From Sinohyriopsis cumingii (Eukaryota; Mollusca; Bivalvia; Unionida; Unionidae): DNA of 64,000 nucleotides. Location of the stretch: NCBI GenBank assembly GCA_028554795.2, contig CM068829.1, positions 132,829,325 to 132,893,324 of the forward strand, read 5' to 3'. The notes under the pieces are model-generated. The model ran no database searches. It had not been told where the DNA came from and saw only the letters and a program-made list of their open reading frames with translations. This document shows positions 21,263-61,250 of the stretch, one piece after another. The translations under genes and the position numbers were made by a program. Position 1 is the first letter of the stretch. The number at the start of each line of letters is the position of its first letter.

Positions 21263-23450
21263 TTTACTATCCACACAGAGGTGAGGAGACAAATAACTAG
21301 CCAAATCAAACCCAAAATCTACCATCCACACATGGGAGAAGCTCAAAAAAAAACCCACAATCTACTATCCACACACGAGAAGAAGCCAAATCAAACAAAT
21401 TCTACCATCCACATACGCCAAGAAGCTAAAAACTTAACCACATTTTACTATCCACACACGCCAAGAAGCAGAAACAAACCCACCATTTACTATCCACACG
21501 CGCGGAGATGCCAAATCAAACCCAAACTATACCATCTACACACGGGAGAAGCTAAAAACAACCACAATCTACTATCCACACACGAGAAGAAGCCAAAATC
21601 AAACCCAAAATTTACTATCCACACACGCTGAGAAGCAAAAACATAACCATAATCTACTATCCACACACGCGGAGATGCTAAATCAAACCCCAAATCTACC
21701 ATCCACACACGCCTAGAAGCAGAAACAAACCCACCATTTACTATCCACACACGCGGATATGCCACATCAAACCCAGACTATACCATCCACACACGGGAGA
21801 AGCTAACAACATAACCACAATCTACTATCCACACACGAGAAGAAGCCAAATCAAACCCAAACTATACCATCGACACACGGGAGAAGCTAAAAACATAACC
21901 ACAATCTACTATCCACACACGAGAAGAAGCCAAATCAAACCCAAAATCTACCATCCACACACGAGAGAAGCTAAAAACCTAACCACAATTTACTATCCAC
22001 ACACGCCAAGAAGCAGAAAAAACCCACCATTTACTATCCACACACGCAGAGATGCCAAATCAAACCCAAACTATACCATCCACACACGGGAGAAGCCAAA
22101 ATCAACCCCAAAATTTACTATCCACACACGCGGAGATGCAAAATCAAACCCAAAATCTACCATCCACACACGCCAAGATGCAGAAACAAACCCAGCATTT
22201 ACTATCCACACACGCGGATATGCCACATCAAACCCAAACTATACCGTCCACACACGGGAGAAGCTAAAAACATAACCAAAATCTACTATCCACACAGGAG
22301 GAGAAGCCACATCAAACCCAAACTATACTATCCATACACGGGAGAAGCTAAAAACATAACCACAATCTACTATCCACACACGAGAAGAAGCCAAATCAAA
22401 CCCAAAATCTACCATCCACACCCAGGAGAAGCTAAAAACATAAGCACAATCTACTATCCACACATGAGAAGAAGCCAAATCAAACTCAAATTATACTATC
22501 CACACACTGGAGAAGCATAAACATAACCATAATCTACTATCCACACACGCAAAGAAGCCAAAAATCAAACCCAAACTATACAATCTACACACGAGAGAAG
22601 CAGAAACATAACCATAATCTACTATTCACACACGCGAAGAAGCCAAAAATTAAACCCAATAATATACTATCCACACACGCAAAGAAGCCAAAAATCAAAC
22701 CCAAATTATACAATCTACACACGAGATAAGCAAAAACATAACCAAAATCTCCTATCCACACACGCGAAGAAGCCAAAACATAGCCACCAATATACTATCC
22801 ACAAACGTGAAGAAACAAAACAAACTCTTACTTTACAATCCACAAACCCAATTATATACTATCCACACTAAAACTAAACATTCATCTACTATCCACACAC
22901 GCGGAGAGGCCAAATCAAACCCCAAATCTACTATCCACACACGCCAAGAAGCCAAATCAAACCCAAACTATACTATCCACACACTGGAGAAGCAGAAACA
23001 TAACCATAATCTACTATCCACACACGCGAAGCAGCCAAAAATCAAACCCAATAATTTAATATCCACATTCGCGAAGGAGCCAAAACTAAACACCAATCTA
23101 CTATCCATACACGCGGAGAAGCAAAACATAACCACAATCTACTATCCACACACGCGGAGAAGCCAAATCATAACCATAATATACTATCCACACGCGCGAA
23201 GAAGCCAAATCAAACCCCAAATCTACCATCCACACAGAAAGGAAGGTTAAATAACCACACACTCTACTATCCACACAAACGTACGTGAGCGCTTACAAAA
23301 CCCAATAATCTACTATCCACACACGCGAAGAAGCAAAATTATAAGCATAATCTACTATCCACACACGGGAAGAAGCCAAATTAAACCCATATTCTACTAT
23401 CCACACAAGATCAGAAGCAAACAACTAAACACTCATTTACTATCCGTTTA
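21263..23450 (+). repeat. minisatellite array, unit about 42-46 bp, roughly fifty units
   Basis: Each unit has the form TACTATCCACACACG, a purine-rich GAGAAGAAGCC, an A-rich part such as AAATCAAACCCAAAATC, and repeats. Two to three sub-variants alternate (GCCAAATCAAACCC versus GCTAAAAACATAACC), implying a higher-order dimer. Because many units are multiples of 3, long spurious frames of the IHTREEAKSNPK type occur; these are not genes. The array begins just upstream of the promoter-like module at 21.2 kb. Confidence 0.95.
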
Positions 23451-33900: not shown

Positions 33901-34590
33901 TCACACCCCCTGCTGCTGCTGATTACATTGTTTATCTAACCCGATTCGATACCGTGTTCTAGGATCATGTAAGTTTATTGTTATAAATCCATGCGGGGTT
34001 ATTTTAGCACGACAAAAGAAACTTTTAAATTTATTCATGTCCATGTCACCGCTACACCAGGTCTGATAAATATTTCTAAGTGTATGTGTACCGACTCCGT
34101 TAAATACAACCAAAATATTGCAGTTATCCCTGATTACTTTTGGTATTTGTGTATACCGCTGGGTTACATAAATCATATCAGTGTTTTTATGCCTGCCTCT
34201 GGAAAATATCCTGGCAGGGTTTGATTGTTTATCCAGCATTACATCATCGTACACAACTAAATTGTTAATAGATCGGTCAAGATCATCAACATTTGGTGCA
34301 TCATTAACATCAGTTATAAATTCAACAATCATCCCCGTTTTCATTCAAAGATTTTGTGCTTTCATTAAAATCTTTTATTACATCATAGCATCGTTGATCG
34401 TCCACAGATGGAGCTACCAAATATAGTTTATCCCATTTCATCCACTTCATTATTAAATTCAACAGTAATTGTGTTTTATCACTTCCAGATGGACCAATAA
34501 TAATCATGCGAACAGAATTTGGTAACACAGCAACATGCTTAACTGGTTCTCGTCGTTTTGTAGCAGGAAAGTCAGTAATTTCCATTAGAA
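33901..34590 (-). pseudogene. FtsK/HerA-type packaging ATPase (Polinton ATP), element A
   Basis: A32-like genome-packaging ATPase of Polintons. Visible landmarks on the minus strand are the P-loop region (VRMIIIGPSGSDKTQLLLNL, about 34460-34520) and the Walker B strand (INNLVVYDDVMLD, about 34220-34270), followed by a SRGRHKNTDMIYVTQRYTQI segment typical of the sensor region. In related viruses this enzyme pumps DNA into the capsid. It is broken. Confidence 0.8.
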
Positions 34591-34649
34591 TGATGTAAAA
34601 TAAATATAGATTTATATTGTGTAAAATGCAAGGTACGCACACCGACAAG

Positions 34650-35010
34650 TGATCTAACAACCATTACAACAAAAAATAATAAATCTGCACTTACTGGCAA
34701 GTGTGAACGATGCGACACAAAAAAAATTAAATTTGTCTCCACTAAGTCATTGCAGTCTGGTGAAAAACCAGCGCCAAAGTCAAAGTCAGCGCCAAAGTCA
34801 AAGTCAAAACCAACGCCAAGTAAAAAAAAAAGCAACACGGAGGTGATATCGCAGCAAAATTAACCCAAACTACCCTGAACTCCATGGGAAAATATCCAGG
34901 AGAAAAACATCTTCCAGGATACAATTACTGTGGTCCAGGAACTCGACTTGATATAAGACTTGACAACCAAAACCAACCAAAATCAGGTGAGGAACCAATG
35001 TCACACGTGT
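34650..35010 (+). pseudogene. PLA2-domain protein (parvovirus VP1-like), element A
   Basis: A CERCDTKKIKFVSTKSLQSG zinc-ribbon-like start (about 34697-34760) is followed by a Lys/Ser/Pro-rich linker and then KYPGEKHLPGYNYCGPGTRL (about 34887-34946), the calcium-loop part of a viral phospholipase A2 as in parvovirus VP1 and Polinton/adintovirus PLA2 proteins. In parvoviruses the enzyme breaches endosomal membranes during entry. It runs on the plus strand, opposite to the ATPase and next to the integrase. It is broken. Confidence 0.7.
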
Positions 35011-35865
35011 CACTGCTGAAAAATGGTTATCCAAACAAGCAATATGGCAAATTTATCTACCACCACCTAAACAAATTCACTTTGCATATTTCGATGTTAG
35101 TGTTCCTAATGAGGTTCATCAGGCTTATATATTGTTTTTATCACATGATACTATACGTCGAAAAATTTACAAATATGCGCTAACGATAGTTGATGTTGCA
35201 AGTAGTTACAACCGTTATTGACAAAAACATCATCAGAAGTTGCCTCTGCGTTTAAACGAATTTATCAACGGGGGCCTTTGCAATGGCCAAATCTGCTACA
35301 GGTTGATCCTGGTAGGGAATTTCAAGGCGCAGTATCATAGCTGATGAAGCAACATAATGTTAAAATACGACGAGGTCATACCGCGATTCATCTTGATCAG
35401 GCAATCGTTGAGCGATTTAATCGAACACTTGCTGAGCGGTTATTTGGATATCAATACGCGAGAGAGCTTATTCAAGACAAAAGATCTCGTGAATGGGTTG
35501 CAAGATTGCCGAGTGTAATAGCTGCGCTAAATAATGAGATTACTAGAATGATTAATATGAAACCCGTTAATGCAATCAAAAATGCGCGCATAACAATACC
35601 ACGAAGTGATTTTTCAAAACAACAAATACAAAGTAACGTCACTGTGAGATATTTGTATGAACCAGGTGAGTTTGAAGGTGGTAAAAAAAGAGCAACTGAT
35701 CCTATCTGGGGTATTACAATCCATAAAATTTCCAGTGTTGTTACATCTACTGGTAGACCCGCAATATACAAATTATATTCAACCGCTCCTCAACGTGGGT
35801 TTACACGTGAACAATTACAAGTAGTTCCCGAAGATACTCAACTACCACCACGATCACTTAACTAA
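35011..35865 (+). pseudogene. Polinton integrase (rve family), element A
   Basis: DDE-type integrase of retroviral kind. Core text: YKYALTIVDVASSY (about 35175-35215), LLQVDPGREFQGA region (35295-35330), then VERFNRTLAERLFGYQYARE with the conserved Glu-Arg-Phe-Asn motif (about 35407-35466). A C-terminal domain GFTREQLQVVPEDTQLPPR ends at TAA 35863-35865. No chromodomain is seen, unlike element C. The family inserts the element DNA into the host genome. It is broken near its start; the C-terminal 173 codons are open. Confidence 0.85.
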
Positions 35866-36095
35866 AACACCAGCGCCTCTGCGTCTGTTACACTCAAGAC
35901 AGGTTAGCATTGTGTTTTCTTGTGTATGACCGCGACTACTATCTTTTCTGTCTATGGTAAATTGTCGTGGGTTACTTTTAGAAAACCACAACATTACACA
36001 GTTACAGCTCATACAGTGATTGTTTTGCTGCTGTTTTAATGTTGCGATAAATTCAGCATCAATATCAAAATCGCGATTAATTTTTTTATCACGAT
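35854..36095 (-). pseudogene. HNH nuclease domain at the end of the polymerase-helicase locus, element A
   Basis: The minus-strand frame ends with a zinc-type HNH domain: HCMSCNCVMLWF, then QFTIDRKDSSRGHTQENTML and TCLECNRRRGAG. Two CxxC pairs and the IDR/H region are visible. It is in one continuous frame with helicase motif VI just upstream, so helicase and nuclease are joined in the same ORF. Its role is unknown; possibilities are replication-intermediate processing or a captured homing-type nuclease. Confidence 0.75.
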
Positions 36096-37130
36096 GTTTA
36101 GCACTGGCAAGTTTTTCTTTTATGGTATTGCTGGTAATTTTACTGTTGGTGGCGTCATCAAAACTTGCAACAATTCTTCGAAGTTGATTTATTCTTCTGA
36201 CTCTGGACACAGCAAGATAGACTAAATTTGACCACTCAATGTGATCGTCAACGATCCACACAATTGTGTTAGAAATTGTTAATCCTTGGGATGAATGAAT
36301 CGTCATTGCGTATCCTAGCCTCCATGGAGATTTGTCAGCGCGTATTGCATCTTCGACAACGCTAATGTCAACTAAGACAACATCATTCAGTACAAGATTT
36401 TGTTTTTCTACTCTTGCAGATGCTGGTTGTGGAATATCGACTTCAATATTTTGTCGTCGTGTATCAGTTGGTCTATAACATAACGGCACTGGTAACGTTG
36501 GGAACTTTTCCTTATGTAACTGAAATAACTTCTGCTGAAGCGTATCTCTGGCTATCTTTCTATTTACAATTATTAAATCATTTGGTCACCATGTTTCCCA
36601 AAAGTCATTCATGGAGGTTTCGGAAATTCTCTTTCGTGCTATTCTGCATTGAATTCTATTTGATTGTAATCTAATTATTTCTTAAACTCACTTAATTCTG
36701 GATCAAGCGCTCTATAATCAGCATTAATTTCTTCGTAATAATCAACGGTTCTCTTTAGCCATTCATGCGGAGATAATCCAGTAAATGGTGGTGGTTGGCC
36801 ATGATCACCACACATTATCACAGCTGTATTTTTTGTTAATAACCAATCAAGAAACATCTTCAACGTTTTTAATGGCACTGTACATATCTCATCCCAAATT
36901 ATAATCCTTGGAATATATTTTTCCCATACGATCAGAAGTCCATTCATCTCCGTTGTATCTAAAAAAGCCATGATATGTGCAAGAATTAACTTCTCGTTGT
37001 TTCATCTCCCTGGCAAGTCTATGTGTTGGTGTTAGTACAATCATATCACCGGATTTAAATAATTCGATCGCACGAGTTGTTTTACCAAATCCTCCTGGTC
37101 CGCTTAAATAAACTGTCTTGTATCTTGAAA
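36096..37130 (-). pseudogene. SF1 (Pif1/RecD-like) helicase region, element A
   Basis: Landmarks on the minus strand: Walker A YLSGPGGFGKTTRAIELF (about 37075-37128), motif Ia VLTPTHRLAREM (about 37005-37040), motif II IPRIIIWDEICT (about 36885-36920), motif III AVIMCGDHGQPPPF (about 36785-36830), and motifs V/VI YAMTIHSSQGLTI and NLVYLAVSRVRRI (about 36190-36310). This is a complete set of superfamily 1 helicase signatures. The Walker A segment shares a single uninterrupted ORF (36889-37467) with the last polymerase motif, showing that polymerase and helicase were one protein. Broken locus. Confidence 0.8.
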
Positions 37131-38491
37131 CTGGATCAAACACAGATGGTGCAGTTGATAATTCTGATATTTGATCACTACGATAATTGTCTTCAATCGC
37201 AACATCTGCGGATTCGCAATAACCATATAACGCTTCTTGTTTTATTCTCCATGAACCCCATGATGCACTAGGATCTGTAAAACGAGTCAATGATTCTTTA
37301 TACGCGGTGTTAATATAAAATGAGTCCGTAGCAACTCTAACTGCGGTGTTAGGAAATCTATTTATCAACGATAACAAATTTATTGAAACATAAGCGAGCA
37401 TAGATGATCTTAGGTGTGTGTACTGGGTAGATTTATCGCTCATTGCATAACTAACAATGTCGCCCATTTTTTTTCCGTCGGATAAATAAACACTTTTTTA
37501 TCTACTTGTATACCTTTATTTGTTATATCATTGATTATAAAATCGTACTCCGCTTTATCTAAAATTAATCTTGCACACTGCCGTTTGTGATCATATGCTC
37601 CGCCTTGGGTAAATTTACCAATTATTCTTCTACCCAAATCCTTCGCAATGTTTTCACTGTCAGTGAGCTTATTCCTGAGAATACTAGGAGCATTATCAAT
37701 GATCTCGTCCATGGGTATATGAGGATATTCAAGTTTATATTCTTCGATGGCTTCATCCATGCTGATGCGCTCTGGTGTGGGTAGCCAAACTTCGGTTTGT
37801 TTCCGATAGGATACAATTGCTTCGCTTACAATCAATGATATTAATATTCCACAATCGAGCATATCGTTTATTGACGCTCCTGTGTCCTTAATTGGTTCTG
37901 CCCATGATTTTATTATACTACTTCGTTTGTCTGTTAAACCATTTCCTCGCTTTGAATTTCTAAGATGTTCGATTACTCGCTCGGCCACACAATTTAACGA
38001 TGAAATTTTCATTGGGGTAATTTTTCGATGTTCGGGGTATTTATCAAATAAAATCCGTAAATAACCACATTTAATGGATATGCTCGATTGTAATATGCTC
38101 TATCAATTCCTGTTAATACTCCCGGTTTGGTTTTATTGTCTACAATTACGGTTTTATGTTTTGAAGTCATTATACGCTCACGCATGTCAAAAACCTTCCA
38201 TTTTCCTTCTTCAAGCTTAACAAACTTCGCCTGAAGAAAATATTTTTTACCATCACTGAAATCCATTTGTGCAAGTATCCTTTCAGCTCGTTTATCATTC
38301 ATGGTTCTATCGTTAAGTCTGGTTTTATACGTCGATGTTGTATACGAAGCTCCATCAAGGTAAAATTCATATTTTGCCTCTCTTATACTATTAGTTGTTT
38401 TATTGTTATATCGCTGAAATGCGCGATCAAAATAAAAAACACTCCTTTGCCGTCGTGGATGTATATCGGTAATTTTGGAAATTTCTTCCAT
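37131..38491 (-). pseudogene. protein-primed type B DNA polymerase region, element A
   Basis: On the minus strand from ATG 38491. An N-terminal segment (FYFDRAFQRYNNKTTNSIRE) is followed by RVIEHLRNSKRGNGLTDKRS, then the palm motif region NIAKDLGRRIIGKFTQGGAY (motif B-like) and VRVATDSFYI (motif C, near 37320-37350). The equivalent locus in element B additionally shows motif A (VDMAAYYPGSS). Polinton polymerases replicate the element from terminal proteins. The locus runs directly into the helicase. It is broken. Confidence 0.75.
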
Positions 38492-39060
38492 ATATTTTCT
38501 AGACAGTTTATTTGTTTAATTTATACCAGTAACAATGGCGCAGGCTTCAGAATGATAATCCCTGATAAAATCAGGGAGAAAAAAATGGCGCAAGTATCAT
38601 AATCATATATATTTATTAATGATTATGATAGTTGCGCCAAACTATAGTCTTAATTTATCAATCTAAGCCTTCTATATTTATTATTGTAGGAAGCTTCAGA
38701 ATGACAATCAGGGAGAAAAAAAGTGTGACAATTATCATAATCATTGATAAATATATATGATTCTGATAATTGTCACAAACTTTAGTCTTAATTTAACAAT
38801 CTAAGCCTTCTATGTTTATTATTGTAGGAAGCTTCAGAATGACAATCAGGGAACAAATGTGGTACAAGTATCATAATCATATATATTTATTAATGATTCT
38901 GATAATTGTCACGAACTTTAGTCTTAATTTAACAATCTAAGCCTTCTATGTTTATTATTGTAGGAAGCCTTGTGGATGTATATCGGTTGAAAATTTCTTC
39001 CATATATTTTCTAGACAGTTTATTAAATATATACACCATTTAAATAAACAATGGCGCAGA
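38453..39060. repeat. tandem and flanking repeats at the polymerase start of element A
   Basis: Roughly three units of 138-150 bp (markers GCTTCAGAATGA at 38543, 38693 and 38831), each with TATCATAATCAT, ATAATTGTCAC and CTAAGCCTTCTATGTTTATT, end at about 38969. A flanking segment at 38453-38541 is duplicated at 38968-39060 (GTGGATGTATATCGGT, TTCTTCCATATATTTTCTAG, CAATGGCGCAG). The array occupies the gap between the minus-strand polymerase and plus-strand genes, the position expected of a divergent promoter or replication-associated region. Confidence 0.8.
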
Positions 39061-39064
39061 ATCA

Positions 39065-39334
39065 TTGTGCATGGTAAAAAATAGGGTCGGCGAAACCATC
39101 TTCAAGGAAATGTGTGGGCGAATACTGTTCTTATCATGGACAATATGTCAGAAAGGGATCTCAAGGCCTATCACTTGCATCAATTGTGGAAATGGTGTAC
39201 GAGAAAAAACACAATTATGCAGCAATTGTGGAGGTAAACGATTTAGGACATTTGCTCGGTATTACGTGCGTAAGAACAACATCGTAATGTCCGAACAAGA
39301 CTACATTAATAGAATTCAGGGAGCTAGCAATTAA
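39065..39334 (+). CDS. small zinc-ribbon protein, element A
   Basis: 89 codons. CINCGNGVREKTQLCSNCGG gives a CxxC-(11)-CxxC zinc ribbon, followed by a basic segment RFRTFARYYVRKN. It sits beside the repeat array and shortly upstream of the HNH endonuclease, on the same strand. Looks whole; the start codon is uncertain. The function is unknown; a DNA-binding or transcription role would fit the motif. Confidence 0.45.
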   Translation: MCMVKNRVGETIFKEMCGRILFLSWTICQKGISRPITCINCGNGVREKTQLCSNCGGKRFRTFARYYVRKNNIVMSEQDYINRIQGASN

Positions 39335-39357
39335 ATATAACCTGTTTAACAATTGTA

Positions 39358-39843
39358 GTGAATAACAAGTTCGTATCTCACCCTGTTTTCACTAGCTACG
39401 AAGCATCTCGCGATGGTACAATCAGACATTGTCAACGAAGAAAAAAATTAGGTAGTATTATTAATAGTGGTTATCTGGCAACGACCATTAATGGTAAATT
39501 CTTTCTTGTACATCGGTTTGTTTATGAGTGTTTTAACGGATTAATTGACGAAAATCTTCTTATTGACCATATTAACTCAATCCGGCTAGATAACGACATA
39601 GATAATTTACGAGCTTTTACTCAAAGTGAAAATTGCCGCGCTGGGCGAACAGGAAAATTTCCAAAACCACCAAAACCGGTTATTGGATTTATCGATGAAA
39701 CCATTATCGAGTTTCCATCGATGTGCTCCGCAGGGAGATATTTTGGCATAGAACAACGTGGCATAAAATTTTCAGCTGATGGAACAACCCACACGGTATA
39801 CTCGCGACGATTCAACTTAAGAGTATCATTTGTATGCCAATGA
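39358..39843 (+). CDS. free-standing HNH endonuclease, element A
   Basis: About 161 codons. VHRFVYECFNGLIDENLLID followed by HINSIRLDNDIDNLRAFTQS is the His-Asn-His core of phage- and NCLDV-type HNH homing endonucleases. The C-terminal part (SMCSAGRYFGIEQRGIKF) resembles NUMOD/IENR-type DNA-binding helices. It lies in the non-structural part of the element, next to the polymerase start, as is usual for selfish endonucleases in viruses. The frame is open throughout; the annotated first codon is not ATG, so the true start is uncertain. Confidence 0.75.
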   Translation: MNNKFVSHPVFTSYEASRDGTIRHCQRRKKLGSIINSGYLATTINGKFFLVHRFVYECFNGLIDENLLIDHINSIRLDNDIDNLRAFTQSENCRAGRTGKFPKPPKPVIGFIDETIIEFPSMCSAGRYFGIEQRGIKFSADGTTHTVYSRRFNLRVSFVCQ

Positions 39844-44241: not shown

Positions 44242-44748
44242 TCATGCTGATATTGCCGCGAGCACATTTAATACTTCACGGCCGCATATTGATGGATCAG
44301 TTAGTGTTTGCGTTGGTAACGTCGAATACCAAACTGGAGTTGGAGTGCTTTGCACGTATTTGAGAAATTCAACTGGCGGAGCTAATCCATACGAATCAAA
44401 ATAGATAATACCACGTGGATCGAAGGCGTAAGCAACCCAATGAGTTCCAACACCATCGCTGTTATCGAGATTAATAATTCCTGTTTCTGGATTATTTGGT
44501 TGTTGCGGTAACTGATCTCGCATAAAAACACCTCTGAAAGTTTTAATTTTAAGTTGTTTGGCAGCATCAAGTAAATCAAAATTTGACATCGGAGTTATCG
44601 TAAATAGGTCCCGGGAAGTCTGAAGCCTTTTCCGTAGGGGAGTCTTAGACCCGCTCCGTATTGTTCCGCTGGCAACTTTAGATGACCTGGCTGAGGCATA
44701 TTGGACTTTTTTGGACGCCTTGTTGGTTTTTGTGTCCGCGATGATCAT
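44242..44748 (-). CDS. adenain-like maturation protease, element A
   Basis: 168 codons from ATG 44748. Catalytic-type landmarks: GVGTHWVAYAFD (His), IIYFDSYGLAPP (Asp after the strand) and SICGREVLNVLAA (Cys), the order of adenovirus protease/Ulp1 cysteine proteases found in Polintons. In that family the enzyme cleaves capsid and core precursors. A basic leader of about 50 residues precedes the domain. The start overlaps the stop of the upstream core-type gene (ATGA, 44745-44748), a compact viral arrangement. A decayed copy is in element B. Confidence 0.8.
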   Translation of the reverse strand: MIIADTKTNKASKKVQYASARSSKVASGTIRSGSKTPLRKRLQTSRDLFTITPMSNFDLLDAAKQLKIKTFRGVFMRDQLPQQPNNPETGIINLDNSDGVGTHWVAYAFDPRGIIYFDSYGLAPPVEFLKYVQSTPTPVWYSTLPTQTLTDPSICGREVLNVLAAISA

Positions 44749-45077
44749 TTTTTTAAGTTCTCCTTGTACACAATTCCCTTTCCAGTTGCTTTCGTTAATG
44801 CCATTCCGGTAGCTGTTTCAACAGCTCCTAACGCGAATGCTTTTGCGACAGCTGGGGCAGCAGCAGCTATTAGCGCTGGTATTGCTGCGAGAAGTGGAAA
44901 TATGCCACCGGTTTTAACCATATCATTGATGGCTTTTGGAGCGAAATCAAGTTGAGTTCCAGTTTTTGCTTGCTTCACTTTATTGAAATGTTTTAGTTGG
45001 GTTTTAGTCAACGATAACTTGTTTGGACCGCCGCTAGCGATTTGATCATTTTTTAGTGTTATCGTTGCCCCACACAC
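44745..45077 (-). CDS. hydrophobic core-type protein (adenovirus pX-like), element A
   Basis: 110 codons from ATG 45077, looks whole. A basic N-terminal half (LKHFNKVKQAKTGTQLDFAP) is followed by MVKTGGIFPLLAAIPALIAA and an Ala-rich amphipathic stretch. The GG(I/F)(F/L)PLL motif is the hallmark of small Polinton/adintovirus proteins compared with adenovirus pX/pVI and may be membrane-active or DNA-condensing. Placed between capsid and protease as in element B (49144-49539). Confidence 0.65.
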   Translation of the reverse strand: MCGATITLKNDQIASGGPNKLSLTKTQLKHFNKVKQAKTGTQLDFAPKAINDMVKTGGIFPLLAAIPALIAAAAPAVAKAFALGAVETATGMALTKATGKGIVYKENLKK

Positions 45078-47029: not shown

Positions 47030-47645
47030 CTAACAACTAGTCACTGTGGTAGTTATCAACGAGCTCATCAATAAACTCTCGATATATATCGATATCCATG
47101 ATACCACCTTGAAATAATCGTCGACAAATATCAGCTGCTTCATTAATTATTTCCGGTGAGTTGTTTCCAGCTCGTTTTCCTCCTATGAGAACTTCTAGCC
47201 GTTGCGCATCATTGATGATATTATTATTAGGACAGTTAATAAAACCACTTCCTAAACCACTGACAGTAGGGCCGGGTGTTCCTCATTGAGATCGTCGCTG
47301 CTTGGCTATCACCCGTTGTTTAAACGCTAGGTAATCGGGATCCTTTAGATCAACACGCGAATTTTTAGATGCAAAATATAATGCAGGAAGCCAATTTGTG
47401 AGTGCTACTATGAGGTTTTAGATAACCATCTTTAAAGTCATAACCATGTGCAGCAATCCGAATTAATTTATCCTGGTTAGTAAAAGTATTAAGAGCACTT
47501 TTAGTAAACATTTCTGCAGGTTGGGGTGATAATGATATGGGGGAGGTTTGGATTGAGATTGTCGTTGTTCTGTTTGCTGCAGTGACGAAGGAGGCTGAGG
47601 CTCTTGCTCAGGTGAATAAGGAGGTGAAGAATAAGCTTCGTTTGC
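47030..47645 (-). pseudogene. minor-capsid or other conserved Polinton protein remnant, element A
   Basis: Minus-strand text includes GSGFINCPNNNIINDAQRLE, VLIGGKRAGNNSPEIINEAA and DICRRLFQGGIMDIDIYREF. The LI.GK.AGNNS..I..E...I...L...G.I....Y..F pattern is familiar from Polinton structural genes next to the capsid region. Assignment to a specific virion protein is uncertain. It is broken. This is the outermost recognisable part of element A on this side. Confidence 0.4.
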
Positions 47646-52056: not shown

Positions 52057-53906
52057 AATCTTACTGATATACATTTCAGAAATTATTATGAAGTGACCTA
52101 TGCTTGATTTCCTACAGATGATTATTATACTAAGTAAATAAATTACAGCGCAGATTTATTTATGTTTCTAAACACAATGTATAAAATAATTTTACATATA
52201 TACTTCTGACTTGACAAAGTCAGTGTTTAAATGCAGCTATTTACCTAGAGATCTAAAAACAGCTAAGCTGTATTGTACATGCAAAGGTGTGCGTTACCTG
52301 TTTTCTGCCTTGATTATGTCGATAAGTTAAAAGGTACAAATGTCCTTCTACTAATTTGAACTATTATAAAATTATGTTAATCCATTCATATTAATTATCA
52401 CGTAGATGGTTAATAATTAATTAAAATTAAGCAATACCGGAGAAAGATATGCTACAGAGTTATCTCCCTTCTTCAATCAATATGTAGTAACAAGCAAGAT
52501 TATTACTGAACTACTCTTCCTGACAGAGTTTTAGCTTGACAGAGTTATCTCCCTTCAACAATAGAGGTCTCAAAATGATATATAACTTGTTTCTTGATAT
52601 TTTACCCAGCATGAGAAACAGCTTACTTGTTTCATTGCTGACAAAGTTTTTATAAGAGATTTTGGTGTCAGATTCGCTGTAAGGAACACTCTGCTGGGGA
52701 TGATAGAACCCTGCCAACAAGGAAATGGAAGACTGCTATCCCTCTGCCTCCACACCACAAACGGGCCTGTAAACCCGATCATCGTTTACGCTCCCACACA
52801 AAGCGTCTCCACAGATACCAAGGATGAGTTTTACGATGAGTTAAACTCGCTCATCGACAAAATTCCCAAGTAAGAGAACTTGATTTTGCTGGGCGACTTC
52901 AGTGCTAGGGTGGGTGCCGACCATGACTCTTGGCCCTCCTCTCTTCGCAAGTTTGGCATTGGGAAGATGAATGAGAATGGGCAGCGCCTTCTAGAGATGT
53001 GCTCGTACCACGACCTCAGCATCACCAATTCATTCTTTCAGACAAAGCCACAGCACAAAGTGTCTTGGAGGCATCCCCTGTCTAAACACTGGCATCAGGT
53101 GAACTTGATCATGACAAGACGGTCAGCCATGAAGGGTGTGCTTCTTACATGTACCTTCCACAGTGATGACTGCGACACCGACCACTCGCTGGTGTGCTGA
53201 AAAAGTAAGCTTCAGCTGAAGAAGATCCACAGCTGTAGGCAAGAGGGTAAAGCACGCATTGATGTGAGCAAAACGTCACATCCAGAAAAGGCTGAGGAAT
53301 TCACATATGCTCTTAACAAGAAGTTTAATTCAGAACCCCCCAACGGCAGTGCCAAAGAAAGATGGGATCACATCAGAGAGACTGTACAGCACAGCCACAG
53401 GGATCTTTGGTAAGAAGCAATCAAAGAACAATGACTGGTTTAAGGCTAACTCCGCCACACTCACGCCAGCCATAGAAAAGCGTCGCAGTGCTCATCTGCA
53501 ATACAAGCGATCCCACTGCCAGAAGACACTACAGGCATACAGGTCCACCAGAAGAAAAGTGCAGAGATTAGCACGGCAGTGTGACAATGAATACTGGCTT
53601 CAGCTCTGTCAGAGCATCCAGTCAGCAGCAGATATCGGAAACATCAGAGGCATGTACAATGGCATAAAGAAAGCAATGGGTCCTACGAAGAAAGTGACAG
53701 CATCACTGAAGTCTGCCACAGGCGATACCATCCACAACAAGGGCAAGCAGATGGAGCGTTGGGTGGAATCCTACTCTGAACTGTAGTCGAGAGAGAACCA
53801 CGTGACCAATGATGCCCTCAACGCCATTGAAAACCTCCCCCTCATGGTCGACCTGGACAGGAAACCGACAGTAGCCGAACTAAAGAAGGCCTAAGAGAAA
53901 CTGTAC

Positions 53907-54819
53907 TTAGGTAAAGCCCCAGGGAAGGATGGCATCCCAGCAGATGTCATCAAGTGAGGCTGTAGCGTGTTGTTCACACACCTGCACGACCTCCTCTGCC
54001 AGTTCTGGGATGAGGGTGCAGTGCCGCAGGACACGAGAGACGCCAACATCGTAGCCCTGTACAAGAACAAGGGCGACAGAAGGGACTGCAACAACTACAA
54101 GGGCATATCCCTTGTCAGCATCGTGGGTAAAGTTGTCGCACGCGTCATCCTGAACAGACTGCAGACGCTTGCTGACAGAGTGTATCCAGGGTCGCAGAGA
54201 GGTCCACAATCGACATGATCTTCATCGTCAGGCAACTGCAGGAAAAATGCAGAGAACAACACAGATCCCTCTTCCTGGCTTTATAGACCTCACCAAGGCA
54301 TTCGATCTGGTCAGCAGAGACGGACTCTTCACAATCCTGGCGAAAATTTGATGCTCTCCAAAGCTGCTAAGCATACTCCAATCCTTCCACGATGACATGA
54401 AAGGCACAGTGCAGTACGTTCGCTCAACAGCCGACCCCTTTGACATCCGCAGTGGAATGAAACAGGGCTGCGTCCTTGCCCCCACGCTCTTCGTCATCTT
54501 CTTCGCAGTCCTGCTCAAGCACGCTATAGGAACGTCCACAGAAAGGATCTACTTGCACACGCGATCAGACGGCAGACTGTTCAGCCTAGCACGACTGAAG
54601 GCAAAGAGCAAAGTGCGTGAAGTCACCAGCAGGGACATGCCCTTCGCAGACGATGCTGTTCTAGCCACCCAAACACAAGCTGACCTTCAGCGCCTGATGG
54701 ACTGCTTTGCTAAAGCATGCGATGAGTTTGGGTTGACCATAAGCCTAAAGAAAATAAAAGTGATGGTTCAGTACGCGGACCCCCAAGCATCATCATCAAC
54801 AACTACGAACTTGAAGTGA
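53907..54819 (+). pseudogene. LINE reverse transcriptase, RTE-like
   Basis: RT domain from the LGKAPGKDGIPAD motif to FADDAVLATQTQADLQRLMD and FGLTISLKKIKVM. The catalytic Asp pair (ADD) and the upstream DLTKAFD Asp are retained, but several stops and frame shifts (near 53957, 54217, 54350) make it non-functional. Confidence 0.85.
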
Positions 54820-55619
54820 TCAGTCAGTTCATGGACCTCGGCTCTACCATCAACAATAACCTCTCTCTCGATGCTGAGCTCAACAAGCGGATCGGAAAGG
54901 CATCAACAACTCTCTCCAGGTTGTCGCAGATAGTGTGGAACAACAGCATGCTGACCCTGAACACTAAGATCACCGTTTACCGTGCCTGCGTGCTAAGCAC
55001 TCTCCTGTACGCCAGTGAAACCTGGACTCTGTATGCCTCACAAGAGAAAAGACTGAGTGCCTTTCACATGCGATGCCTCCGACGCATACTCGGGATCACC
55101 TGGAGCGATCGAGTAACAAACAACGAGGTGCTCGAACGTGCCAAGATTCTCAGCATGGTCACACTCCTCCGTCAACGTCGCATCAGGTGGCTGAGCCATG
55201 TACGTCGGATGGATGACGGACGGATCCCCAAAGACATTCTTTATTCGTAACTCGCCTCTAGCAAAAAGGCGATCGGACGGCCACATCTCCGCTTCAAGGA
55301 TGTTTGCAGGCGCGACATGAAAGCCCATGACATCAATGTCAACACCTCGGTAGAGCTCGCTCTAGACAGATCAAGCTGGCGACATGCTCTGATCACTGGT
55401 CTGAAAGCCGACGAGGACAAGCTACGCTTGCTAGCTGATAAAAACGATCGTATAGGAAGAAGCAGCAGCTCTAACCAAATCCAGACGCAACCTTCAAGTG
55501 CAGCAAGTGCAGCAAGGACTGCTATTCTCGTGTTGGACTACATAGCTACAGCAGACGCTGCAAAACCACCAACCGGGACATCTCTCAAGGGCACACTTCC
55601 ATCCATAATATCAATTTAA
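54816..55619 (+). pseudogene. LINE C-terminal domain
   Basis: MDLGSTINNNLSLDAELNKR, YASETWTLYASQEKRLSAFH and MRCLRRILGITWSDRVTNNE are the standard post-RT region of RTE-like elements, followed by RQRRIRWLSHVRRMDDGRIP. A break near 55248 separates it from the last segment (ALDRSSWRHALITGLKADED). Confidence 0.85.
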
Positions 55620-55639
55620 ATATATACTTGTCTTAATTA

Positions 55640-58600
55640 TAACATGGAAGAATTATTGTCAGTTATTAAGATTAAGCCTTCTAAAGATCAATTTAATCTT
55701 GACGAAATGTCACCTGACTTACCGGTATGAGCTCTGGTTGATCCGATGAATAAAACTTTGATTAATAATATTGTTGATGCCAAGAAAGAATTTAACAAAC
55801 ATGGTGCATAGTATGTGTGGTCGACGTTCAAAATCATGCGCAACACCGATGGTGTCGACAAAGTGGTCGATGCTATGATGAATGCCAAACGAAAGGCAAC
55901 GATTATTAATTATCTCGAAAATCGAAGCTATTTTTTCAGAGTAAAGTTTATGTATTAGGAGAAACAAACAATAATACTTGGATTATCAGTGACAAACCTG
56001 ACCCTGTCCTTCATAACGAAAACGTTGCCGTATTAAGTAAAAATTCCAAACCAAGAATGTTGACAAACCGTATTATGAAAGAGCATATCCTCTAACCACG
56101 GTTATATATGGAATTTATCCAATAAATGATAAACCCAGCATTAATAATCTAAAGCCGATGAAATTTTCAAAAACAAAATGGTGTAGCAGAACGAGTAACG
56201 GAACATTTTACAAACGCGATACGTGGAAATGGTTTAACGGATAAATGACATACAATAATAAACGAGTGGGGAGAAATAGTTAAAAATACCGGAGCATCTG
56301 TCAAGGACGCCGCTGACCTAAGAAAGAAACTAAAATTTCCAATAATGGTAAAAACAATAACCGGAGTTATTTTGTACAAATCGAAATATAAATCGAAAGG
56401 AGCTTCGATTGAAATTATTGATCATAATGCGCATGCGTGTACTAATGCAGTAACAAAATTTCCACGAAATCGAACTGTTAAATTTTACTAAGGAGTTATA
56501 TTTGATTTCTTAACGAAATAAGTAAAAGTGATCCAATATTGGTATGGTTATTTCAAAGTTCCGATAATGGAAATTATGATCAGTTTGTCCGACCTAATGG
56601 AGATATTTATCGCACAGAATCTCTCCATGAAGAAATGAAAAATCTTGCGCTGAAATATATCTATGATGCTGAAAACTTTTTGAGTAATTGTTTTACCGTT
56701 CCGTCAGTTGCTGCTCATTTTGCTAAAGGGAACAAATCTTGGAAACCAGCACTATTTTATTTTCTTGAAGAAATACAACGCGGCTGTGTCGAATACAGAC
56801 ACGGTGGACAACGGAATACTAAATACGATTATAAGGATATTATTTCGGTTGATATGGCTGCATATTATCCCGGAAGTTCTCTTGGTATGGGTTCTAAATA
56901 TTTTGAGCGATATGGACATCCAATGCACGAGATGACCAGAGTATCGATAAATGGACCATTACCAGTGTTTGACCTGCCTGGATTTGCTTGTATCGAGTCA
57001 TTTAAGTTTGCCGAAAATCTTCATCCGATTTGTTATGTCTGGTTTGGGAAACATTTTTCATAAAATATATGGACACCACCATTATTATTACGGTATATGC
57101 TGGATGTAAAAATATTATTATTGTAACAGTAAGTGAATCAATTATATCGTATTGTCCGCAGAAGGAAGTTTAGTTACCACAACAAAATAAATATTATGAT
57201 GATGAAAATCCTGATATAAATGATTTTGAGAATAACATCGTAAAAGATCTTGGAAGAAAAATAATCGGTAAATTCACCTAAGGAGAATCATATTATCATA
57301 AACGACATTGTACAAGATTTATTACAGATGATGCTGAACTCGAATTTATAATTGCTGATGCAAGGAATATAAAAACGTTTATAAGTCGAAGTAATGTTAA
57401 TTTATCAGACGGAACTAAATTAGGTACAATTGTGAGTTATATTGATGGTGAATCACCGCAGTTTACTCATTTAAGATCTTCAATGCTTACGTACGTTTCG
57501 ATAAATCTATTATCACTGATACATAGAGTTTCTGAGTTTGCTGTCAGAGTCGCTACGGATTCATTTTATATCAATAAAAACATACAGGATTGCTCCAACA
57601 ACTACATTTCGGCACTTATGCATCATGGGGTGAATGGAGAATAAAACAAGAAAATATATTCAATTATTCTGAATCCGCCGACGTTGAAATTAAGGATAGT
57701 TATTACCAAAAACCTAAATATTAAAATTATTATCTGCGCCATCTGTCTTTGATCCTTTAGCTAGACATAAAACAGTTTATCTCAATGGGCCTGGTTGTTC
57801 TGGTAAAACAACTCGTGCGATCGAATTATTCTTGAACAGTTGTTCAGAAATAGTTGTATTAACACTTACACACAGACTTCCAAGAGAAATGAGAGAAATA
57901 CATATTAAATCATGCACTTATCATTAAATTCTTTCGATGGAAGGGAGATAAATCCAGTCCTGAACGAATGGGAGAGAAATGTATTCCAAGGATAATTGTT
58001 TGGGATGAAATGTGCACTATTTCAGTAGAAACGTTAAAAATATTTCTTGATTGGTTTAAAACAAAAAATACCGCTCTAATAATGAGTGGCGATCATGGTC
58101 AACCACCGCCTTTTGTTGGATTGTCTCCACATAAATGGCTAAAGAATTTTTTAGATTTTTATGAAGAAATAACTGATGATCATTGAGCTCTTGATCCAGA
58201 ATGAAGAGAGTTTAAGAAATTAATCAGACTACAGCCGAATAAAATTCAATGTGAAATAATGCGTGAAATAATATCAGAAACATTTATTAATAATTTTGGA
58301 ATTTATGGAGACCAAATGATTTGAAAGTTGCAATTAGAAAGATCGTAATGCACTTCAACAACAGTTATCTATGTTACATAAAGAAACATTTCAAATCTAC
58401 CCGTACCATTGTGTTATCGACCAGCAGATACGCGACGACAGAATATCGATGTTGATATACCAGGATCGTCAGAGAAACAAAATCTTGTATTAAATGGTAT
58501 TGTTTTAGTTCATGTCGGTGTTGTTGAGAGCTCCATATACGCAATGACGATTCATTCATCACAAGGGTTAACCAAGTCTGATAAAAATATTTGGATCGTC

Positions 58601-58670
58601 GATGATCGTATCGAATAGTCAAATTTAGTTTATCTTGCAGTGTATGGAGTCAGAAGAATATCTTAGCTGT
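55640..58670 (+). pseudogene. DNA polymerase B and SF1 helicase locus, element B
   Basis: The counterpart of 36.1-38.5 kb in element A. Starts MEELLSVIKI at 55644. Polymerase motif A: IISVDMAAYYPGSSLGMG, about 56845-56900. Motif B-like DLGRKIIGKF is near 57250, and motif C FAVRVATDSFYI near 57540-57575. Helicase follows: Walker A LNGPGCSGKTTRAIELF (about 57783-57835), motif II IPRIIVWDEMCT (about 57985-58020), motif III ALIMSGDHGQPPPF (about 58075-58115), motif VI YAMTIHSSQGLT (58538-58575). An HNH tail was not recognised here. Broken many times. Confidence 0.78.
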
Positions 58671-58824
58671 GGAGAATTGTCATAGACTTAACAGAAAACA
58701 AAAATCAAATTCAGGAAGCCATTGCTGGCAATGGCGATGGTATCTCCTTATCATTATTTTCCTTTTTGATCATTTACCTTATTCATTCTTTAGCCTTCCT
58801 CAAATTATTACTCTCCATCTTGAC

Positions 58825-59929: not shown

Positions 59930-60906
59930 CCTTTGTCTGGAGTGAAATCAAAAGCCACAAAGCCTAGCCTCCTGCATAATCGTCGTACGAAATGCCGTGA
60001 CTGTTGTTGGTCCCTAACAGTCCTGTGGTTTGGTACAAGGACAAATACGATTTCAAATAATTCTTCTTGTCAAAGTCAAGTTAGAACTCTGGTACACAAG
60101 GTCTTGGCATCGCGACTGACTTCAATCTTGGACACCTTGTAATGATCAAAATCGAAAGTATTTTAATCGTGCGCTCAGTTGATGGCTTTATTGCTAATGA
60201 TGCCAATCATTAAACATTTGGGTAACTGTCCTTGGAACAGTTGATCTTCGATCTTGGATCAGTGTCCAGCGGCAACGGTGAGGGTTTACCCTTGCACGAG
60301 TCGTATCGGATACTTGGCGGTCGTTCTGCTCAAAGTGTAACTGTTGTCGTTTCCAAACTTAGGTAACACTTCCACGAGTCGCACGTAGAGTCAGGCTTCT
60401 TTGATTATGGTTTTGTACTCGTTGGCATGGGGTATCAAATGGAAAACGGTACTGCTTCAATTCAGTCTCTGGTGGATATCAACACAGTTCGGCAAATACT
60501 TTTCTTGCAACCACATGTCCAAATGCAAACGTTACATCAGTTCCAAACTACGTCCTTGCAGGATTATATTTCCACTTGTTAAATCCCATATTGTGTGGAT
60601 CGTCAGCTGCTGTCAGGACTGTGTCATTAAATTAGTCCACAGTCATTGTGTCAGATTTCCATGCTACGCAAGCATCAGAAGAGTATTCCTGACATCTTTT
60701 CCGTTCGTCAAGAAACTTTTGATGTACGCTCGGTAAGGGTAAGTATCCATGCTGCTGCTGACCAGTTTGTTATTCAAGTACAAATTAACTTTGCTGAACA
60801 AGGAATGCATGAAAATATTTACTGGGGCTAGTCTGGAATCGGCACCCGGAAAGGGGTGTTCCGTTTTGATAACTTTCACTTTCAGGTACAAGTAACTGCT
60901 ATTCAA
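59930..60906 (-). pseudogene. F54H12.2-like major capsid protein, element C
   Basis: The best segment, 60664-60906, contains APVNIFMHSLFSKVNLYLNN, KLVSSSMDTYPYRAYIKSFL and TNGKDVRNTLL. This is the highly recognisable strand-loop region of the F54H12.2-type protein annotated in many invertebrate genomes, now regarded as a Maverick capsid protein. Downstream text (DDPHNMGFNKWKYNPA region near 60550-60610) is decayed. It is broken. Confidence 0.75.
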
Positions 60907-61250
60907 ATCGATGTAATCTTCGGCCTGTCTTTGACTTCAAATTCGATGGGGGCTGAGGTCGTCAACATAGCAAACAGACCCAGTTCTGACTTAGAACATT
61001 CGCAAGACTCTCGGTGCATCATTTTCTCTCTCTGCTGTTTAATAATCAAAGATGTCTAATTCTCTGACTTTTCTTCTTTTCTTTGTCGTTCTAGGCCTGT
61101 GTGTGTAAAGAACTCTGGCGGGGTGTCTTTGTCGTCTCCTTCTGCCTTGTCCTTGCTGTCGTGTCAGGGAAGCAGGAATGCCTGACTGGGCAGCATTCAA
61201 TATATTTATAGGAGCTTATTGTGGACCCAAAATGCCTTTCTCAGTTTGAA
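60907..61250. other. interval in element C without recognised gene
   Basis: Probably the N-terminal end of the capsid gene on the minus strand and its upstream spacer. The text is too decayed to assign. Confidence 0.4.

What the first reader, a model, noticed from the sequence alone, without database searches (positions are those of the whole stretch)
35854..38491. Polymerase B, SF1 helicase and HNH nuclease fused in one Polinton locus
The frame at 36889-37467 contains both the last polymerase motif (VATDSFYI) and the helicase Walker A (GPGGFGKTT) without interruption. The frame at 35854-36489 contains both helicase motif VI and an HNH domain. So polymerase-helicase and helicase-HNH joins are each visible directly. 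Typical animal Polintons encode a polymerase without a helicase. A three-part replication protein of this kind would mark an unusual Polinton lineage. Element B shows the same polymerase-helicase order.
Basis: partly seen in the sequence, partly recalled or inferred. Interest (0 to 1): 0.78.

Follow-up and report, generated by a model that had tools for sequence, protein, structure and literature searches.

The report
Polymerase–helicase–nuclease replicase of animal Polinton-like elements
A virus-like mobile element that is present in many copies in this animal's genome carries one long gene that strings together a probable DNA polymerase, a DNA-unwinding helicase and a DNA-cutting nuclease; the join is real and kept by selection, but the same kind of fused protein is already known from related elements of single-celled hosts.

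Summary
In the window's decayed copy one open frame joins polymerase motif C to the helicase Walker A, and another joins helicase motif VI to an HNH domain. Each join is spanned at 150 of 150 scored places in the host genome, lists capped at 150. By hand count, 58 of 150 places lie in stop-free frames of 1160 codons or more. In 7 of 7 aligned open frames, picked for length, palm-like and helicase regions share one frame; 4 of 7 hold the whole HNH. Palm, helicase and HNH are under purifying selection. The window copy is dead: broken frames, one stop, and a 269-codon deletion removing motif A that was seen at no other scored place.

The interpretation needs correcting: this is the 'Tlr1-like helicase' (pPolB-S1H) architecture, described for Polinton-like viruses with a C-terminal GIY-YIG or HNH (PMC11071308, passages). 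What may be new is a large, apparently recent family of it in an animal. The weak point is the polymerase label: three motifs in order, but profile comparison is only suggestive (9, 17 and 25 of 300 shuffles reach the score in three versions).

The parts
38018..38491 (-). N-terminal part of the replicase gene, copy A (aligns with residues 85-255 of the open frame in L023)
   Evidence: tblastn 36% identity, E 8.6e-38; ATG at 38491
37452..38024 (-). Copy A piece: candidate vOTU-like Cys stretch (LNCVAERV, within 37965-37997), then directly the palm part with motif B (GRRIIGKFTQGGAYDHK, 37584-37634); a 269-codon segment with motif A and the candidate His is missing at 37860/37862
   Evidence: tblastn pieces 254-311 and 581-717 abut; motif positions; first 20 residues before the junction align at no other scored place; segment at least 247/269 covered in 36 of 38 other fetched loci. 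vOTU label is by eye from a described pattern
36889..37497 (-). Open frame joining polymerase motif C (VATDSFYI, 37312-37335) and helicase Walker A (GPGGFGKTT, 37075-37101)
   Evidence: 150 of 150 scored genome places span the join
36681..36920 (-). Helicase motifs II and III (IIWDEIC 36882-36902; CGDHGQPPPF 36783-36812)
   Evidence: 77.5% identity to L023 residues 900-979
35863..36678 (-). Helicase C-terminal half with motifs V-VI (TIHSSQGLT 36277-36303; VYLAVSRVRR 36193-36222) and C-terminal HNH domain (35872-36015); one stop inside; open from 36585 to 35854
   Evidence: 150 of 150 scored genome places cover nearly the whole 243-aa open piece
55629..58729 (+). Copy B of the same replicase, decayed, many stops: motif A (56848-56874), motif C (57549-57572), Walker A (57787-57813), motif II (58004-58024), motif V (58547-58573); HNH not found
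   Evidence: tblastn with L023 frame; motif positions
35341..35865 (+). Integrase fragment (rve type), convergent with the replicase gene
   Evidence: By eye matches the C-terminal half of the frame beside the replicase in fetched copies; the L023 frame hits rve E 4.6e-6, below Pfam cut-off; the window piece itself has no rve hit
33901..34663 (-). Packaging ATPase (Pox_A32 type) in two broken frames
   Evidence: Pfam E 1.6e-5 (above cut-off) and 4e-4 (below); the open frame in L021 gives E 1.7e-14
39044..39843 (+). Separate neighbouring gene pieces: zinc ribbon and HNH_3/NUMOD homing-type nuclease, divergent from the replicase
   Evidence: Frames (by eye); counterpart in L023 hits HNH_3 E 3.9e-16
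44242..44817 (-). Adenovirus-type protease fragment of the same element
   Evidence: Peptidase_C5 E 0.0023, below Pfam cut-off

Best explanation
The locus is a dead copy of the replication gene of an integrated, virus-like (Polinton/PLV-type) DNA element. The family's gene encodes one protein of roughly 1,170 residues from the first aligned ATG, in the order: N-terminal region with a candidate vOTU-like stretch, a polymerase-like palm without detectable exonuclease, a Pif1/Dda-type SF1 helicase, and an HNH nuclease. It has the architecture of the 'Tlr1-like helicases' (pPolB-S1H). Likely action (inferred): the N-terminal part serves protein priming and processing, the palm copies the linear element, the fused helicase unwinds ahead of it in place of a proofreading exonuclease, and the HNH nicks DNA, either as a homing function or to process replication intermediates. 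Shown: the fusion, the helicase and HNH identities, purifying selection on the parts tested, and many long open, closely similar copies in an animal genome. Not shown: polymerase activity, priming, or the role of the nuclease.
For: Joins at 150 of 150 scored places; 58 of 150 places in stop-free frames of 1160 or more codons, hand count; palm and helicase in one frame in 7 of 7 aligned open frames, complete HNH in 4 of 7 (picked for long frames). Helicase. HNH. dN/dS medians: palm 0.22 (21 pairs), helicase 0.18 (21), HNH 0.21 (10), N-terminal part 0.39 (15), candidate vOTU 0.19 (21, one pair at 1.01). Between subfamilies: palm 0.07-0.13 (4 usable of 5 pairs, dS 1.3-3.9), helicase I-III 0.09-0.13 (5 pairs, dS 0.9-1.8), helicase II-VI 0.05-0.13 (5 pairs, dS 1.1-2.7), linker plus HNH 0.13-0.33 (5 pairs, dS 0.55-1.2). 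Motif A, B and C stretches kept in 4 of 4 representatives of three groups, with A in place of the first Asp of motif C. Neighbour frames: integrase-like and ATPase-like in 8 of 8 loci (by eye; Pfam on one of each). Three copies on three contigs are 99.5-99.9% identical over 1 kb. Host is an animal: 40 matches to Wnt, a family known (recalled) from animals only, several on contigs that also carry the element. Architecture as in PMC11071308 (passages).
Against: The palm is not recognised by Pfam nor by a PDB profile search at E 10. Profile comparison with 8 PolB sequences pairs motifs B and C correctly but is reached by 17 of 300, 25 of 300 and 9 of 300 shuffles; in one version the helicase stretch scored higher against the PolB profile (23.3) than the palm did (18.8). 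Comparison with the genome's own PolB family finds nothing. A three-motif score (6.2) is reached by 13 of 400 shuffles and by 1 of 104 other proteins, its motif C part fits elsewhere than VATDSFYI, L025 scores only 0.1, and the PolBs from which it was built score 135-156 except one fragment. In the open frame of L025, motif A reads ACYLGS and the candidate vOTU Cys is Tyr. The vOTU call is by eye. No pPolB-S1H relative came out of viral contigs, though the 7- to 8-residue patterns used are insensitive, so membership rests on architecture, not on a tree.
Confidence: 0.75

Rival explanations
1. The palm is catalytically dead and serves only as a scaffold or primer-binding part; the protein works as a helicase-nuclease, and polymerase is supplied in trans, for example by the ordinary long PolB genes of other elements in the same genome.
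For: First Asp of motif C is Ala in 7 of 7 aligned frames and in 4 of 4 group representatives, and motif B lacks the usual N and Y; profile similarity to PolB is weak. DNA_pol_B_2 frames are present, 75 scored candidates. The authors' earlier view was that the Asp change inactivates the palm (PMC11071308 passage).
Against: Palm under purifying selection about as strong as the helicase; motif A Asp and the second Asp of motif C kept in 7 of 7 frames. PMC11071308 (passage) names active polymerases that lack the same Asp and predicts activity.
Confidence: 0.25
2. The HNH is a selfish homing nuclease that has settled at the end of the replicase gene and adds nothing to replication.
For: PMC11071308 and PMC12220804 (passages) treat such GIY-YIG/HNH domains as homing endonucleases; a separate HNH_3 homing-type gene lies next door.
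Against: HNH stretch found in 35 of 35 scanned copies and covered at 150 of 150 places (a search whose query held it), with purifying selection. This fits a function for the element at least as well; best PHROG label is endonuclease VII, though that is only a family name.
Confidence: 0.35
3. The joins are accidents of decay: separate genes brought into one frame by lost stops or deletions in this one copy.
For: The window copy is decayed and carries one in-frame deletion.
Against: Joins repeated at 150 of 150 scored places, including long stop-free frames, with selection on the parts.
Confidence: 0.01

Closest known systems
Tlr1-like helicase / pPolB-S1H of Tlr1, Polinton-like viruses and transpovirons (PMC11071308, PMC3671162, PMC4028283: passages read; Krupovic 2016 vew019 not held)
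   Same: Polymerase-like palm N-terminal to an SF1 helicase in one protein, C-terminal GIY-YIG or HNH in some, first Asp of motif C missing, no detectable exonuclease; Tlr elements also carry an rve integrase and a packaging ATPase.
   Different: Here in an animal genome in many copies; HNH rather than the GIY-YIG of Tlr1; an adenovirus-type protease fragment is present (weak hit), said to be absent in Tlr (PMC4028283 passage); vOTU and TP domains not demonstrated; no tree.
OmPLV Helicase SF1-pPolB of Oxyrrhis marina (PMC12721341, abstract and passages)
   Same: SF1 helicase and PolB fused in an integrated Polinton-like element; many fragmented copies.
   Different: Order reversed (helicase N-terminal), full exonuclease domain, rve integrase not detected; no HNH named for that protein in the passages I saw.
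Canonical Polinton/Maverick and adintovirus PolB
   Same: rve integrase, A32-type ATPase and protease as element neighbours; the same genome holds DNA_pol_B_2 frames of up to about 1360 codons.
   Different: That PolB has exonuclease-like and DTD motifs (by eye); in 2 of 2 truncated frames scanned (946 and 959 residues, C-terminal ends included, N-terminal parts not fetched) Pfam shows the polymerase only.
S1H-GIY-YIG and N-terminal HNH-helicase fusions of cryptophyte PLVs (PMC12220804, passages)
   Same: Large helicase proteins joined to homing-type nucleases, one of them next to an rve integrase.
   Different: HNH is N-terminal to the helicase there, C-terminal here.

Membership tests
Tlr1-like pPolB-S1H | SF1 helicase C-terminal to the polymerase region in one protein | tested here: met
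   polymerase region itself defined by motifs
Tlr1-like pPolB-S1H | Family B, protein-primed palm (motifs A-C, TPR1/TPR2) | tested here: inconclusive
   Motifs in order with spacing similar to other PolBs; statistics only suggestive; TPR not testable without a structure
Tlr1-like pPolB-S1H | First Asp of motif C missing | tested here: met
   VATDSFYI in 7 of 7 frames, 4 of 4 representatives and both window copies
Tlr1-like pPolB-S1H | Exonuclease domain lost | tested here: inconclusive
   No convincing alignment of the N-terminal region to the PolB profile, but the palm itself is barely detected, so absence is weak evidence
Tlr1-like pPolB-S1H | vOTU domain with Cys and His before the palm | tested here: inconclusive
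   Candidate NCVAERV and IIDHN[AS]HAW by eye; Tyr instead of Cys in 1 of 7; no convincing PDB profile hit
Tlr1-like pPolB-S1H | C-terminal GIY-YIG or HNH (in some members) | tested here: met
Tlr1-like pPolB-S1H | Groups with Tlr1/PLV/transpoviron helicases in a tree | not tested
   No such sequence obtained: 4 viral-contig scans with replicase parts and 3 with the ATPase
Polinton/Maverick | rve integrase | tested here: met
   L023 neighbour frame rve E 4.6e-6, below Pfam gathering score
Polinton/Maverick | A32-type packaging ATPase | tested here: met
   E 1.7e-14 in L021, above cut-off; 1.6e-5 in window, above cut-off
Polinton/Maverick | Adenovirus-type protease | tested here: inconclusive
   E 0.0023 in window, below cut-off
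Polinton/Maverick | Stand-alone pPolB with exonuclease | tested here: not met
   No DNA_pol_B_2 match listed inside the window (capped list); the replicase is the helicase fusion
Polinton/Maverick | Double jelly-roll capsid and terminal inverted repeats | tested here: inconclusive
   One capsid-region frame scanned in Pfam: no hit. No terminal inverted repeats recognised by gap-free search of the decayed elements

The most novel reading that the evidence does not exclude
Animals harbour a recently active lineage of Tlr1-type elements whose replicase is a four-part protein (processing region, exonuclease-less protein-primed polymerase, SF1 helicase, HNH nuclease) in which the HNH is a working part of replication rather than a homing parasite, coexisting in one genome with canonical Polintons that use a stand-alone polymerase.
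Probability: 0.3. Interest if true: 0.7.

Novelty: new member of a known kind. Interest (0 to 1): 0.48.

Why it matters
In the passages that I could read, pPolB-SF1 helicase fusions are discussed for protist elements, Polinton-like viruses and giant-virus plasmids. An animal genome with at least 150 copies, many in long open frames and some nearly identical, gives natural variation and selection estimates for every domain. It offers a place to ask whether helicase fusion replaces proofreading, and whether the terminal nuclease belongs to replication. It also shows that one genome can hold two Polinton-type replication genes at once.

Tried and rejected
Decay artefact: rejected. A deletion shared by a non-autonomous subfamily: not supported. 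In one search (81-residue query, junction near residue 37) only the window copy aligns over residues 1-20; the other 149 of 150 places start at residue 21 or later, all but three at 33 or later. Of those three, two were fetched (L121; L109/L124, one place) and hold 269 and 266 of the 269 missing residues; the third (C19) was not fetched. Of 38 other loci, L107 and L116 hold only 82 and 41, as partial copies with different coverage.

Relatives outside the host: 7 viral-contig scans. Helicase motif patterns gave 66 loci whose frames hit the helicase profile at best but never the palm profile (E 1); ATPase patterns gave a few contigs with A32-like ATPases and no replicase match; palm, N-terminal and HNH patterns gave no relative. 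The phages collection gave no match. The eighth viral scan and the genome-contig scan were not used.

Structure: the 243-aa window piece folded alone gave mean pLDDT 34; not interpreted, no fold search made. The 138-bp hairpin repeat at 38579-38990 was considered as an origin of the element: it occurs elsewhere, often in arrays (110 matches), so an independent repeat is more likely.

Literature: 8 searches and passages of 9 papers showed no animal pPolB-S1H-HNH. They do show animal elements close to PLVs by capsid (Nematostella vectensis; PMC4028283 and PMC4642659, passages), whose replication genes I did not look into. The key 2016 paper and two animal Polinton papers were not held, so I do not claim that it is unpublished.
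Full report
What was checked. The window lies in contig C6 of a 2.9-Gb assembly with 1138 contigs. The host is an animal: 40 matches to the Wnt family (animal-only, recalled), on contigs C3, C4, C5, C10, C11, C126 and C259, the first five of which also carry the element. Contigs C1-C19 look chromosome-sized from the lengths and coordinates seen, which would fit a bivalve, but that is my inference; the species and even the phylum were not identified.

The window copy. The gene on the minus strand is covered by five pieces: 38491-38018, 38024-37452, 37497-36913, 36920-36681 and 36678-35863. Neighbouring pieces lie in different frames and the last has one stop. Within the second piece, residues 254-311 and 581-717 of the reference open frame (L023) abut, so 269 codons are missing, motif A among them. 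Only the window copy aligns across the junction; the other 149 of 150 scored places start at residue 21 or later of 81. Of 38 other fetched loci (37 places, since L109 and L124 overlap), 36 hold at least 247 of the 269 residues; L107 and L116 hold 82 and 41. The window copy is therefore not a working polymerase, although its two joins are genuine.

The family. Matches to the polymerase-helicase piece and to the helicase-HNH piece were capped at 150, and all span their joins. In one search, 31 of 150 matches contain a stop (hand count). In one search, 58 of 150 lie in stop-free frames of at least 1160 codons (hand count). Eight loci were fetched for their long frames; seven frames were aligned (the eighth, L028, contains Ns): palm and helicase are in one frame in seven of seven, and HNH is complete in four (L021, L023, L025, L026), cut short or outside the frame in three. 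Among 35 copies scanned with profiles made from those seven, all 35 have hits to all four stretches, some partial. Eight of the 35 were fetched for long frames, eleven came as best matches, and sixteen were chosen mostly for divergence; this is not a random sample, and the seven frames match their own profiles by construction.

Domains, in L023 numbering. Residues 85-480 have no significant profile hit; LNCVAERV and IIDHNAHAW are candidate vOTU Cys and His stretches by eye, following the description in PMC11071308. Motif A is VDMIACYPGS (496-505), motif B AKDLGRRIIGKFTQG (653-667), motif C RVATDSFYI (755-763). Helicase motifs I, II, III, V and VI (labels by recall) lie between 838 and 1138; Pfam AAA_19 E 3.8e-9, PDB helicase chains E 1.6e-8, PHROG Dda-like E 5.4e-16. 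HNH about 1197-1247: PHROG endonuclease VII E 2.6e-12. The first HNH motif reads DR, not the DH or HH that I recall as usual; whether it is active is open. Open frames are not free of odd residues: L025 has ACYLGS in motif A and Tyr at the candidate Cys, L021 has GHHGQ in helicase motif III.

Is the palm a polymerase? PolBs fetched for comparison show D-x2-S-x-YP, an N-x-LYGK or LWGK stretch and DTDS. Ours has matching elements at similar spacing, and a free profile-profile alignment pairs motif B with B and C with C. But scores are reached by 17 of 300, 25 of 300 and 9 of 300 shuffled versions. In one search the helicase stretch even outscored the palm (23.3 against 18.8). A three-motif score of 6.2 is reached by 13 of 400 shuffles and 1 of 104 other proteins, against 135-156 for PolBs used to build it (one fragment aside). 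Database searches find nothing. I therefore rest the polymerase call on motif order, conservation and the known architecture, and say so.

Selection and age. dN/dS is below 1 in each domain on the median, with one vOTU-region pair at 1.01; between subfamilies it is 0.05-0.33 for palm, helicase and HNH. Frames were chosen for being open, which favours constrained copies. Two pairs had saturated dS and gave no ratio. The 84 codons upstream of the presumed start also show a low ratio (3 pairs); they overlap the antisense zinc-ribbon gene, so a low ratio alone does not prove coding. In a 1-kb helicase-HNH stretch of twelve long-frame copies and four earlier ones, nine copies are 96.5-99.0% identical to each other, three are 99.5-99.9% identical on C9, C15 and C17, and these two groups differ by about 26%. 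This suggests recent activity in more than one subfamily; flanks were not compared, so duplication of host segments or of the assembly is not excluded.

Neighbourhood. In the eight 8-kb loci, frames of 120 codons or more show, by eye, an integrase-like frame convergent with the replicase in 8 of 8 (328-330 residues in 5), an A32-like ATPase in 8 of 8, a divergent HNH_3-type frame in 6 of 8 and a PLA2-like frame in 6 of 8; Pfam was run on one of each. The window's element A keeps this order.

Comparison with the literature. PMC11071308 (passages) describes pPolB-S1H proteins with TP, vOTU, palm and S1H, C-terminal GIY-YIG or HNH in different PLVs, and a missing first Asp in motif C. PMC12721341 (abstract and passages) reports the reversed order in a dinoflagellate. 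PMC12220804 (passages) reports S1H-GIY-YIG and N-terminal HNH-helicase proteins in cryptophyte PLVs. PMC4028283 (passages) says that Tlr carries rve integrase, ATPase and SF1 helicase, and that a PLV capsid groups with Polintons of a sea anemone. None of the passages I saw names an animal pPolB-S1H; the main 2016 paper was not held. So the finding is best filed as a new, animal-hosted member of a known kind, with tree-based membership untested.

Noticed in passing
window 37860-37862: In-frame loss of 269 codons in the replicase of copy A, seen at no other scored place; the frame reads on through the junction.
   Followed up: yes
window 38579-38990: Three tandem 138-bp units made of near-perfect hairpins between replicase and the HNH_3 gene; 110 matches in the genome, often in arrays (C19, C15, C17), so probably an independent repeat.
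   Followed up: partly
window 39044-39843 and L023:6777-7262: Second, separate nuclease gene of HNH_3/NUMOD type next to a zinc ribbon, beside the replicase in 6 of 8 loci by eye.
   Followed up: partly
host genome, L001-L008: A different, long PolB family (DNA_pol_B_2, frames up to about 1360 codons, 75 scored candidates) without helicase match in the two parts scanned coexists with the fusion family.
   Followed up: partly
window about 47300-47600: Elements A (minus) and B (plus) appear to lie head to head with the same gene order (by eye).
   Followed up: no
window 52598-55619: Frames that look by eye like a LINE-type endonuclease and reverse transcriptase, inside element B.
   Followed up: no
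window 60664-60936 (-): Frame that by eye resembles the N-terminal part of a Polinton major capsid protein; possibly part of a third element.
   Followed up: no
window 21300-23430: Long array of roughly 42-bp repeats.
   Followed up: no
L021:6661-7164: Small gene joining DUF5679 and a phospholipase A2-like domain (E 8.9e-14 and 4.6e-13) beside the integrase.
   Followed up: partly
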